Positions 12,923 through 46,080 of a stretch of 64,000 bases of DNA are shown here, one piece after another. The notes below the pieces were generated by a model. That model was not told where the DNA came from, did no database searches, and saw nothing but the letters and a program-made list of their open reading frames with translations. The stretch spans positions 1,054,056 through 1,118,055 of the forward strand of contig KB445800.1 of NCBI GenBank assembly GCA_000320605.2. Direction: 5' to 3'. The position numbers and the translations under genes were made by a program. Source of the DNA: Gelatoporia subvermispora B (Eukaryota > Basidiomycota > Agaricomycetes > Polyporales > Gelatoporiaceae). Each line of letters starts with the position of its first letter. The first letter of the stretch is position 1.

Positions 12923-14675
12923 ATGTCTGAAATCTACGGTCCGCTAGCTGATCAAATTGTCAGCCTCATTGGCTCTACGTGAGTTGCAAGGACACGCCGT
13001 AGCATTCGTTCTACTCATGTTATGCCGTGACACACTGTTCCAAGCGTTATCGGAAACTATTGTATTGTCGCTTCGACCGGTACGACCCATACAGATGCTC
13101 TGTATCACAGACAAATGACCCTCCTGGCCATAGCTATCGTTCTTTATGATCACCTGTGCACAATTCCAAATGAGGCGCAGTTGATATGGGGTCGGAAACC
13201 AACCGCTACTATTATCCTATTCCACACGAACCGGTGGCTGATTGTGATCTGGATGATGATGAACATCCTCGAGTGTTTCTTCCCTTTCAGGACTGTTGTT
13301 GTGAGTGCGCTCAGATTCTGACCGAGTTGGTGTCTATTAACGCAAGGCACTCCAGAGGTTAGATCCCAATCTACTCGGGTACACTGGATCTAATTCACAT
13401 GGCTGAACTTCAATTCAGCTGTTCCTGGATTTACTACACGGACAACGTACTTGACTTATGCTTGCTCATCTTGTGGGCAGGTAAGGCGAAGCCATGAATG
13501 TATTTGGTAGCAATTGAACAGTCTCAACAGCATTTTCGACCATTCGTGTCCATGCGCTTAGCGGTGGCAATCATTTTCTGCCGGCCATCGTCGCATTGCT
13601 GAGTTTGGTGCCAGTCGGTACAAACGCGGTCAGTTTGAGCAATCGTGTCAACAATGGGCATTAACCCTTGAATCTTATATAGTATGGTGGATTCTACCGC
13701 AATCAGTTGCAGCTGGAAACCGTACCGATACTTGGGAATGGCTGTCTCGATGCCACAGACATGTCGGAGACAACCACTATGAAGTAAGTTGGCCTGGAGT
13801 TACGAAATATATCGCTGACCTACCTTATTCATACAGCTGTATGTCTGGCTTACATGTATGTGTTCGTTCACTCACACCATCCCAGTCGAAATTTGCACTC
13901 GTGTGTGCGTTATTCTAGCAGATGCCGTCGTTCTGGCGGTGACATGGTCGAGGACATGGGACACAGTACGGAGGGCCCGTGCGCAGAACGTGAAAACGCC
14001 ATTCATGACTATGCTCTTGCGTGACGGTATGTCGAATTGTCACAGTTACGCTAGGATCATATCTCATCGAAATGGCACAGGTTTCCTATATTTTCTGTTG
14101 GTTCAACCGCCAGTATTTTCTCACTATGCTGACCAGTTTTCAGGGGTCTTCTGTCACTCAACGTCTTGAGTATTGTTGGTCGGAGTACTAACGTATGCGT
14201 CTGGGTATTGCTGGAACGTCCCTCTACTGAAAAGAAGAACCCCAGGTATTCATTGATGCCACCGCATTCTTGACACCGTTGGTCAGCACTGCTTATTAAT
14301 TGGTCCAGCTGACTCTGTTTGCTATACAGACTGTCGTCGATTGTCATCACCCACTTCCTTCTCGACCTCCGTCAGCTCACCCACAGCTCTGATGACGCAA
14401 ATGCTCCCTCGCAAAGATCAAGCCTGCGATTCCACTCGTTTGTGGACAACATGGGCGAGTCGCTGGCCCATGGTTCTGAAGACGACGGTGATGACGATAT
14501 AGTCTGGGACGACGACGGGCAGCATAGCATGGAACATTTACCCGCCAGAGGCGAGATGATGTCCAGTCTACAAGATGGGTCCCGAGTGCCCATCTACGAA
14601 CGGGTGTCAGGCTATGTCCGGGAGACCGAAGACCCGGAGGAAAGCACAATGACTACTGGTGCCTTGAATGTGTGA
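12923..14675 (+). CDS. DUF-1: DUF6533 seven-helix protein
   Basis: Model join(12923..12978,13045..13079,13134..13300,13356..13357,13419..13480,13531..13628,13683..13783,13837..13838,13886..14026,14081..14096,14144..14192,14246..14277,14330..14675), 13 exons, 368 aa. The head has YDHLCTIPNEAQLIWGRKPTATIILFHTNRW (about residues 40-75), the DUF6533 signature. Further helices include WIYYTDNVLDLCLLILWA, FLPAIVALLSLVPVGTNA and VCVILADAVVLAVTWSRTW; the helical part ends ITHFLLDLRQL. A long acidic tail carries NMGESLAH and WDDD. Function of these fungal integral membrane proteins is unknown. Two exons are only 2 nt long (13356-13357 AG, 13837-13838 CT); without both the frame breaks. It is a plus-strand relative of the four-gene array 15-30 kb away. 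Confidence 0.85.
13356..13357 (+). other. 2-nt micro-exon 1 (AG) of DUF-1
   Basis: The upstream intron 13301-13355 ends CCAG; the downstream intron 13358-13418 starts GTTAGA. The preceding exon ends phase 0 and the following exon needs two more bases before TGT. AG plus C makes a Ser codon before Cys, conserved (Ser or Arg, then Cys) in all five paralogs. Confidence 0.7.
13837..13838 (+). other. 2-nt micro-exon 2 (CT) of DUF-1
   Basis: The upstream intron 13784-13836 ends ACAG; the downstream intron 13839-13885 starts GTATGT and ends CCCAG. The preceding exon ends phase 2 (ATG AA) and the next needs phase 1. CT restores the frame to give MNFEICTRV. The four array paralogs use AC at the same place. 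Confidence 0.65.
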
Positions 14676-44326: not shown

Positions 44327-46080
44327 TCACGAGGAAGATTCCCCGGCTAGTGCGGTATGATCATTGGACAATTCGCATTCCGTGTGGTGGTCAATATCGG
44401 CATTCTGTGTGTCACGTTGTACATCTTCAACGTCGTCCCAGATCGCTTCATTGCAATTACTAGGGACATAGTCAATGAATTCGCCTATATTGCTCAGAAA
44501 TGAACTGAGCACGGGCGCTGAGACTTGGGAAAGGTTCTGATCAAGTTCCCCATCTTGTTGTACAGAGGCGGAGTTTCCGTCACCCATGGAGACGTTGGCA
44601 GTTTGATGGAGGTCGAGGAGGAAGTGTGAGATGATGATCGAAGAGAGTCTGGGGGGCGTGTCTTATCAGTCACAGCAATGTTGAAGATGACACTTACTTA
44701 CGGTACCGTGAACATCGAGGTGTAGTCGAAGACCTGCCGGAGACCCGGAGTTAGTCAGTTGAGAACTGCCAAGCAAATCTTTACAAACATACAGTGCTTA
44801 TCCGACCGATTATGTCCAGTGCATTAAGCGACAGTAAAGCCCTGGGCATAGTGTCCTGGGGTTTGTAAATTTGTAAGGAAGCGCGATACAAAAAATTACT
44901 CACAGAAAATACAAGGTCCCTAGTAACTCGGGAGACAGTTGAGATACGATAACTTTGATAGAGCATTTCGACCCACCATCACGAAGGAACAAAGTCAAAA
45001 GGGGATTCCAAACATTCTGCCGTTGTGCCATCCTAGCTATCGCCCACATCCTTGACCAAGTTACTATGAGAACAATTGTGTCTGCTACCATGGCGGAGAC
45101 TCGACTGCTAATCACGACTGTGGCTATGTGAGCGGACATCTGCTGAAATATGTAGACGCACGTCTGTATTACAATGGATAAATAAGTCTCCCTGAATGTC
45201 AATCCGACTCACTGATTTGTCATTGTGGTCGATTCTCCCACGAGGTCAATGCACAACCTTCCCATTAGTGGTAAAGTGATAATCTGCCAGTCGTTGCCGA
45301 CGTATAGATAGAACTATAGATAAGGCAAAGAGGATGCACATCAGCGCTCACAAAGATGAACCTGCTCTTGCACTGACCGCATTGATCACCACTGGCACAA
45401 GGTTGAGTAGCATGACAACACTAGTGATTACTAGATTCCCCTTGCTGATAGTATACACGCGGATACCTGAGAACACTTCCAGGCAACATCAGTCACTACT
45501 ACTAATAGTCGCGTGCTGACTCTGAACTCACCCATGCATACTGTAAATAAGCACAATTCAATCGCGCCGAAAACGGCAGATAGCCCGACACAACTGACAA
45601 TGAGAAGGTCATGCAAAGTTGAGTCGTGATCGTATTCTGAACATAAGGAACTCGCCTCTGAAAAAAAAGCGTATGAAAGATGACAACTGCACGGGGGCTA
45701 TAACACCTACTTGGGGTGTGGCCGCGGGAAATACCATGAGAATACTGAAAGTAGCCCATGTGAAAACGAGCCACCGATTTGTGTGGAATAGAAGTGTGAC
45801 GCCGTCTAGCTTCCTTCCCCACATCGAGTTTATTTCCTGTGACGTTGTGCAGATATGATCATAGATAACAATGACTGCGGACAAAATGTATCACTGAATG
45901 GTCATACATCGAGGATTCTGGATGACAATACCCGCTGCAGAAATAGCAGAATTGTTGGCGAAGAGGCTAGGCGAAGGTTATTATGACCTGCTTGAAATGA
46001 CGGATGACCATCACTCGCCTGGACCTTAGAAGACTGGCGGTCTGATCCACGAGAGAACCCGAGTCATATACTTGCGACAT
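44327..46080 (-). CDS. DUF-5: DUF6533 seven-helix protein, array gene 4
   Basis: Model complement(join(44327..44648,44702..44733,44793..44841,44904..44919,44977..45117,45162..45163,45213..45313,45378..45475,45532..45593,45656..45657,45711..45874,45932..45966,46019..46080)), 361 aa, the shortest tail. Signature YDHICTTSQEINSMWGRKLDGVTLLFHTNRW. Later: ITSVVMLLNLVPVVINA, VSAMVADTIVLIVTWSRMW, SSIIISHFLLDLHQ, tail SSFLSNIGEFIDY. Micro-exons: AG at 45656-45657 and AC at 45162-45163. Two introns start with GC rather than GT (GCGAGT after exon 1 and after micro-exon 1). Its DUF6533 segment has Asn-Asn-Ser where the others keep Asn-Tyr-Cys. No TATA box lies at the usual place. It may be drifting but has no stop. 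Confidence 0.8.

What the first reader, a model, noticed from the sequence alone, without database searches (positions are those of the whole stretch)
12923..46080. Two conserved 2-nt micro-exons in five DUF6533 paralogs
In DUF-1 to DUF-5, two consecutive-intron pairs each leave exactly 2 nt of coding sequence between them. The first is AG (13356, 30403, 35505, 39949, 45656). The second is AC in the array and CT in DUF-1 (13837, 29911, 35008, 39456, 45162). In every gene the exon before the first micro-exon ends phase 0 and the next begins needing 2 nt; the exon before the second ends phase 2 and the next needs phase 1. Skipping either breaks the frame in all five, and retaining the small introns meets stops or wrong-frame protein in most copies. 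Both positions are kept although the genes have diverged widely. Exons this small cannot be recognised by exon definition, so splicing order is probably downstream intron first, then upstream intron.
Basis: partly seen in the sequence, partly recalled or inferred. Interest (0 to 1): 0.88.

Follow-up and report, generated by a model that had tools for sequence, protein, structure and literature searches.

The report
Paired two-letter exons in mushroom receptors
A wood-rotting fungus carries a large family of membrane-receptor-like genes that appear to contain two coding segments only two DNA letters long, each needed for a readable message, which would test how small an exon the splicing machinery can handle.

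Summary
All ten 2-nt segments lie at the stated coordinates between short introns with complete splice sites (one GC-AG, the rest GT-AG), and each is needed for frame. It is also wider than stated. In a spliced-alignment survey of 73 DUF6533 loci of the same genome (Gelatoporia subvermispora B), 60 gave confident models. Site 1 is a 2-nt exon in 53 of 60, site 2 in 57 of 60, both in 51 of 60, nearly always at the same codon and phase; the 60 models hold no other internal 2-nt exon. The dinucleotide varies between genes, which argues against a misread acceptor AG. A few paralogs lack the upstream intron, and there the two letters are fused, in frame, to the exon before. A subfamily about 22-24% identical keeps the site 1 exon. 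Best reading: constitutive 2-nt micro-exons in 7TM receptor-like genes, spliced by intron definition in two successive steps. Not a stwintron. Micro-exons of 1 nt are known in plants, so this is a new variant of a known kind. No RNA of these genes was available.

The parts
12944..14384 (+). DUF-1, DUF6533 7TM gene (CERSUDRAFT_124842), span of the modelled exons
   Evidence: spliced alignment, 13 exons 35,35,167,2,62,98,101,2,141,16,49,32,55; annotated protein P0001
13301..13355 (+). DUF-1 intron upstream of site 1 (55 nt, GTGAGT..CCAG)
13356..13357 (+). DUF-1 micro-exon 1, AG
13358..13418 (+). DUF-1 intron downstream of site 1 (61 nt, weak donor GTTAGA)
13784..13836 (+). DUF-1 intron upstream of site 2 (53 nt)
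13837..13838 (+). DUF-1 micro-exon 2, CT
13839..13885 (+). DUF-1 intron downstream of site 2 (47 nt, donor GTATGT)
29357..30807 (-). DUF-2, span of the exons modelled
30405..30457 (-). DUF-2 intron upstream of site 1 (53 nt)
30403..30404 (-). DUF-2 micro-exon 1, AG
30336..30402 (-). DUF-2 intron downstream of site 1 (67 nt, donor GTTTGA)
29913..29962 (-). DUF-2 intron upstream of site 2 (50 nt)
29911..29912 (-). DUF-2 micro-exon 2, AC
29865..29910 (-). DUF-2 intron downstream of site 2 (46 nt, donor GTGCGT)
34458..35898 (-). DUF-3, span of the exons modelled
35507..35556 (-). DUF-3 intron upstream of site 1 (50 nt)
35505..35506 (-). DUF-3 micro-exon 1, AG
35440..35504 (-). DUF-3 intron downstream of site 1 (65 nt, donor GTTTGA)
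35010..35064 (-). DUF-3 intron upstream of site 2 (55 nt)
35008..35009 (-). DUF-3 micro-exon 2, AC
34964..35007 (-). DUF-3 intron downstream of site 2 (44 nt, donor GTACGT)
38915..40335 (-). DUF-4, span of the exons modelled
39951..40000 (-). DUF-4 intron upstream of site 1 (50 nt)
39949..39950 (-). DUF-4 micro-exon 1, AG
39885..39948 (-). DUF-4 intron downstream of site 1 (64 nt, donor GTTGGA)
39458..39507 (-). DUF-4 intron upstream of site 2 (50 nt)
39456..39457 (-). DUF-4 micro-exon 2, AC
39412..39455 (-). DUF-4 intron downstream of site 2 (44 nt, donor GTGCGT)
44594..45887 (-). DUF-5, span of the exons modelled (one search adds upstream exons beyond 45887)
45658..45710 (-). DUF-5 intron upstream of site 1 (53 nt)
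45656..45657 (-). DUF-5 micro-exon 1, AG
45594..45655 (-). DUF-5 intron downstream of site 1 (62 nt, GC-AG, donor GCGAGT)
45164..45212 (-). DUF-5 intron upstream of site 2 (49 nt)
45162..45163 (-). DUF-5 micro-exon 2, AC
   Evidence: not chosen
45118..45161 (-). DUF-5 intron downstream of site 2 (44 nt, donor GTGCGT)

Best explanation
Each DUF6533 gene of this type carries two constitutive 2-nt coding exons. Each lies between two short introns that are recognised as units across the intron (intron definition). Because the 3' splice site of the first intron and the 5' splice site of the second are only 2 nt apart, the two introns of a pair are removed one after the other, as in recursive splicing, except that two letters stay in the message. 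Micro-exon 1 supplies the first two letters of the codon just before a strongly conserved cysteine at the start of TM3 of a seven-helix, GPCR-like protein; micro-exon 2 ends one codon and begins the next at the start of TM5. The letters AG at site 1 probably also serve as the exonic part of an otherwise weak downstream 5' splice site. The arrangement is old in the family; paralogs with a single intron look like losses of the upstream intron. Shown here: sequence, frame, conservation, fused forms. Inferred: inclusion in mRNA, two-step splicing, any order of steps, the role of AG.
For: Gene models and phases in the five genes. Of 73 loci, 60 score at least 300 half-bits; of these 53 have the site 1 exon, 57 the site 2 exon and 51 both, at the same codon and phase in 52 of 53 and 56 of 57. 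For the 51, models without any exon under 10 nt score lower by a median of 58 half-bits (48 of 51 by at least 30), with the residues at both sites given no weight. No other internal 2-nt exon in the 60 models. Dinucleotides vary: site 1 AG 44, GG 4, AT 2, GT 2, AA 1; site 2 nine kinds. Fused forms: site 2 exon 103 = 101+2 with one intron in L093 and L075; site 1 exon 169 = 167+2 with one intron in L007, L061, L070, L082; single intron after ..ATGAG in L077 and L084 (L077, L082, L084 score under 300). L089 and L090, 22-24% identical to DUF-2, keep 167-2-62-98 exons. The conserved Cys follows in 56 of 60. Annotated P0003 equals the conceptual protein of L042 over both sites. Of 23 related proteins predicted on contigs of 1.06-2.9 kb, presumed transcripts (DNA not seen), 21 match an X-Cys motif at site 1. 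Site 1 downstream donors are weak (mean log-odds -0.20 against 5.55 in 328 control introns) and weaker after AG than after other dinucleotides, -1.25 against 4.90, p=0.0009.
Against: No RNA from these genes was available. The AG/donor link rests on few independent changes: 2 independent pairs on supported branches, not significant; ten of the 44 AG genes share one donor, GTCAGA. The control introns came from models whose scoring already favoured consensus donors, which flatters the contrast with controls; the comparison of upstream and downstream donors within site 1 suffers less. In several loci one in-frame intron of about 100 nt came out best in the first rounds, DUF-5 site 2 included. Margins are small in L083 (12.7) and L096 (11.8), and 1.7 in L075, which has site 1 only. 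Site 1 was not resolved in L060 and L092, and in L073 and L078 the single intron found is of a doubtful kind. The survey profile came from earlier models that already held the pairs. Thirteen of 73 loci scored under 300 and were dropped from the counts. Only 2 of 12 annotated proteins with a matching locus agree with the model at site 1 and 4 of 12 at site 2.
Confidence: 0.87

Rival explanations
1. Each intron pair is one larger intron (about 100-130 nt) with other, perhaps non-canonical, splice sites, so that no 2-nt exon exists.
For: For some loci the first alignments preferred one in-frame intron: DUF-5 site 2, 99 nt; site 2 of L041, L043, L044, L045, L048, L051 with 99-116 nt, and site 1 of L039 with 123 nt. 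The annotated DUF-1 protein has K instead of N at site 2, which no GT/GC-AG exon choice that I could find in the sequence gives.
Against: The span from first donor to last acceptor loses 2 nt and breaks the frame. With the wider profile all of those loci went to the pair, and forbidding exons under 10 nt costs a median of 58 half-bits in the 51 genes with both. Introns on both sides have ordinary lengths (medians 53/62 and 55/50). The AG cannot be the downstream acceptor's in the 9 of 53 genes with another dinucleotide, and fused forms keep the two letters.
Confidence: 0.07
2. A stwintron: one intron nested in a splice element of another, both removed with nothing left in the message.
For: Two introns almost abutting, consecutive splicing, fungal genome. 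Stwintrons are described in Ascomycota (search listing; passages of PMC6616335).
Against: Complete removal would drop 2 nt and break the frame at each of the 53 and 57 pairs. Each intron has a donor and acceptor of its own (the aligner admits no others).
Confidence: 0.02
3. The micro-exons are regulated switches: skipping is frequent, frameshifts the message and lowers receptor expression, perhaps for many family members together.
For: Skipping gives a stop in 51 of 53 (site 1, median 30 codons on) and 48 of 56 (site 2, median 25; one model with a stop of its own left out) genes. Site 1 downstream donors are weak family-wide.
Against: Nothing here shows skipped transcripts. Some paralogs do without the pair. 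The exons are not frame-keeping cassettes.
Confidence: 0.12

Closest known systems
1-nt constitutive exon of plant APC11 (PMC4674806, passages and Discussion read) and conserved plant microexons incl. 1-nt VPS55 (PMC8831610, passages read)
   Same: Exon of 1-2 nt between two introns, missed or wrongly annotated; in most monocots an intronless APC11 carries the letter inside one exon; intron definition plus stepwise removal is proposed.
   Different: The plant 1-nt cases are single microexons in genes of one to a few copies. Here two 2-nt exons per gene recur in over 50 paralogs of a fungus, the letters vary, and at one site they may support the next donor.
Fungal microexons: 20-nt exon of Trichoderma Xlr2 (PMC11121469, passages read) and Phanerochaete P450 exons down to 6 bp (PMC1184071, passages read)
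   Same: Very small internal exons in filamentous fungi; the Xlr2 exon was missed by the JGI model.
   Different: Those are 20 nt, and 6 bp at the shortest; the Xlr2 exon is regulated by glucose. Here 2 nt and, by the frame, obligatory.
Stwintrons (spliceosomal twin introns; passages of PMC6616335, listing of others)
   Same: Two introns that must be removed in consecutive reactions under intron definition.
   Different: In a stwintron nothing remains between the introns; here 2 coding nt remain.
Recursive splicing / zero-length exon (named in PMC4674806; otherwise recalled)
   Same: A 3' splice site followed at once by a 5' splice site, serial removal.
   Different: Two letters are kept and introns are about 50-60 nt, not long introns cut in steps.
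SNB1 of Coprinopsis (DUF6533, 7TM; PMC10949477, title, start of abstract and section 8 seen)
   Same: Same Pfam family, seven predicted helices.
   Different: Its exon structure was not examined here.

Membership tests
Micro-exon (ultra-short internal exon) | Internal segment of 15 nt or less between two introns with complete splice sites | tested here: met
   2 nt, flanking introns 44-77 nt with own GT/GC donors and AG acceptors
Micro-exon (ultra-short internal exon) | Coding and needed for the reading frame | tested here: met
   Frame and stop tests; fused forms
Micro-exon (ultra-short internal exon) | Inclusion shown in RNA | not testable with these tools
   No RNA reads of this species at hand; only proteins of presumed transcripts of relatives
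Stwintron | Both introns removed completely, no letters left between | tested here: not met
   Loss of the 2 nt shifts the frame at every pair
Stwintron | One intron interrupts a splice element of the other | tested here: not met
   Each intron has its own donor and acceptor
Recursive splicing site (zero-length exon) | Acceptor directly followed by donor, nothing kept | tested here: not met
   2 nt between acceptor and donor, kept by the frame
Pfam DUF6533 (PF20151) | Match above the curated cut-off of 24.1 bits | tested here: met
   P0003 59.1 bits, DUF-2 conceptual protein 53.3 bits; 150 places over the cut-off in the genome, 150 of 255 candidates scored
Class A GPCR | Seven-helix fold like solved receptors | tested here: inconclusive
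   AlphaFold model of P0003, mean pLDDT 74, seven long helices; the 50 PDB matches listed (of 1004 with E up to 10) are GPCRs, but best E 9e-4 and TM 0.29-0.54
Class A GPCR | Sequence membership | tested here: not met
   For P0003, DUF-2 and P0026 only DUF6533 is above its Pfam cut-off

The most novel reading that the evidence does not exclude
Two obligatory 2-nt exons have been kept since early in the DUF6533 family and now gate a repertoire of perhaps a hundred or more mushroom chemoreceptor-like genes: every functional receptor message needs two serial splicing events across a 2-nt exon, so one trans-acting change in splicing fidelity could switch the whole repertoire on or off together.
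Probability: 0.12. Interest if true: 0.88.

Novelty: new variant of a known kind. Interest (0 to 1): 0.66.

Why it matters
A natural set of over 50 diverged genes that all need 2-nt exons, some with fused or changed forms, is a direct test bed for how small an exon intron definition can serve, in which order two almost abutting introns leave, and whether exon letters act as splice-site parts. It also bears on annotation of this receptor-like family: 10 of 12 matched JGI proteins differ from the model at site 1, and annotated relatives in other Agaricomycetes show scattered inserts and gaps there.

Tried and rejected
Tried: a donor-overhang signature (Val before the Cys in annotated but not in presumed-transcript relatives): 12 of 81 against 0 of 21, p=0.068, and many are Mycena, where Val may be genuine; not used. 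Phylogenetic test of AG against donor strength: too few independent pairs. Third subfamily L002/L004: a 2-nt GG at site 1 appears, but margins are 8.8 and 16.9 half-bits and the two are 81% identical; undecided. L001 has another structure there. Relatives in viral contigs: none. Branch-point-like motifs: 37 and 34 of 53 (site 1, upstream and downstream intron) and 46 and 43 of 57 (site 2) against 304 of 470 other introns; no clear contrast. Papers: '2-nt exon' 0 papers; six other wordings gave 1 paper, on HLA-F, seen in the listing only; microexon with fungi 61, basidiomycet 12, single-nucleotide exon 8, Coprinopsis 2, and microexons with mushroom and long-read 2; tiny exons with fung and intron 3; stwintron 10; DUF6533 2. 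A Coprinopsis long-read annotation paper that I recall as mentioning microexons is not held under the DOI I tried, so priority in mushrooms cannot be settled here, and 'not in print' is not claimed.
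Full report

Observation. The ten 2-nt segments were read directly and sit between short introns with complete splice sites. A hand model of DUF-2 gives an open frame through both. A spliced aligner written for this purpose, which allows exons of any length and only GT/GC-AG introns, recovered both in DUF-1 to DUF-4 and the first in DUF-5 with a DUF-2 query, and both in all five with wider queries. 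Skipping either one, or keeping either neighbouring intron, leads to a stop in all five genes.

Family survey. PF20151 matches at least 150 places in the genome (150 of 255 candidates scored). I surveyed 68 loci besides the five window genes. The refined aligner used splice-site weights learned from 328 introns away from both sites and a family profile with the site residues neutral. Of 73 loci, 60 score at least 300 half-bits and 13 do not. Of the 60: site 1 is a 2-nt exon in 53, one intron in 5 (L007, L061, L070 at the downstream position; L073, L078 at the upstream position and doubtful), unclear in 2; site 2 is a 2-nt exon in 57, one intron in 3. Both occur in 51, neither in 1 (L007). No other internal 2-nt exon occurs in those models; one other internal exon under 10 nt does, 4 nt in L078. 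The median identity between the 60 proteins is 39%. The contents vary: AG 44, GG 4, AT 2, GT 2, AA 1 at site 1; AT 23, AC 12, CT 6, GT 5, GC 4, AG 3, TC 2, GA 1, GG 1 at site 2.

Natural tests. At site 2, L093 and L075 have a single intron and the exon before it is 103 nt, 101 plus the 2. At site 1, L007, L061, L070 and L082 have a 169-nt exon, 167 plus 2, and a single intron; L077 and L084 read ATG AG before the single donor, giving the same Ser-Cys. L077, L082 and L084 score under 300. On a quick tree of 67 rows (10 of 64 inner branches well supported) the single state at site 1 needs one change and at site 2 four; the tree cannot be rooted. L089, L090 and L097 belong to another subfamily (L089 and L090 22-24% identical to DUF-2). 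They show the same start, 167-2-62 (L097: 167-2-68), and an 8-nt exon at site 2; forbidding small exons, at all places together, costs 84, 90 and 32 half-bits. This makes the site 1 pair the likely older state.

Proteins elsewhere. Of 18 annotated G. subvermispora relatives that I compared, 12 match a surveyed locus; 2 of 12 agree with the model at site 1 and 4 of 12 at site 2. P0003 agrees at both. P0001 agrees at site 1 but has Lys for Asn at site 2, as expected if a 2-nt insert were forced onto the donor letters by a transcript aligner; that is inference. I also compared 122 relatives: the 120 listed of 384 hits, plus P0019 and P0022. Of these, 23 were predicted on contigs under 3 kb (presumed transcripts; DNA not seen) and 99 are otherwise, nearly all genome annotations. 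The X-Cys motif at site 1 is matched by 21 of 23 and by 81 of 99. The length of the segment around it, against L089, runs from -1 to +5 residues in the 23 and from -12 to +30 in the 99.

Splicing. Site 1: donor of the upstream intron strong (mean log-odds 7.56), of the downstream intron weak (-0.20); controls 5.55; site 2: 6.21 and 5.87. The controls were picked by a scoring that favours consensus donors, so the contrast with them is flattered. Within site 1, downstream donors after AG average -1.25 (44 genes) and after other dinucleotides 4.90 (9 genes), p=0.0009; over distinct combinations 30 against 8, p=0.0055. Independent evolutionary pairs are too few to confirm it.

Protein. Pfam finds only DUF6533 above cut-off. 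The AlphaFold model of P0003 has seven long helices and a beta hairpin (mean pLDDT 74), which I take to be extracellular. Ser125 (micro-exon 1) and Cys126 lie at the start of helix 123-155, the second conserved Cys199 in the hairpin, Arg212-Leu213 (micro-exon 2) near the start of helix 207-245. The listed PDB matches are GPCRs at weak scores. SNB1, a DUF6533 protein required for fruiting-body patterning according to its title, is predicted 7TM (PMC10949477: title, start of abstract, section 8).

Known ground. 1-nt exons are proven in plants (PMC4674806, PMC8831610), so the kind is known; in the held library the fungal cases seen were 20 nt (PMC11121469) and 6 bp (PMC1184071). The pair of 2-nt exons repeated through a large fungal receptor-like family is a new variant as far as these searches reach.

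Noticed in passing
DUF-1 14081-14096; DUF-2 29657-29672; DUF-3 34756-34771; DUF-4 39205-39220; DUF-5 44904-44919: A further small exon of 16 nt (encodes about GTLYFL) is present in 59 of 60 confident family models; the annotated DUF-1 protein (P0001) lacks it.
   Followed up: partly
L089, L090 (and L097): The other DUF6533 subfamily has an 8-nt exon at site 2 and, in L089 and L090, a 9-nt exon further on.
   Followed up: partly
45594-45655 (-): DUF-5 uses a GC donor (GCGAGT) after micro-exon 1; its first intron also begins with GC.
   Followed up: no
L097: Member of the other subfamily with an in-frame stop in the model; possibly a pseudogene.
   Followed up: no
whole genome G000: At least 150 DUF6533 places, many close together on the same contigs, a very large receptor-like repertoire for one fungus.
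   Followed up: no
P0034, P0042, P0047, P0054 and other annotated proteins of Polyporales and Agaricales: Inserts or gaps of varying length just before the conserved Cys suggest that the same site 1 pair may be misread in other genomes.
   Followed up: partly
window 20001-24000: G+C of 63%, against 57-58% in the 4-kb blocks on either side; not examined.
   Followed up: no
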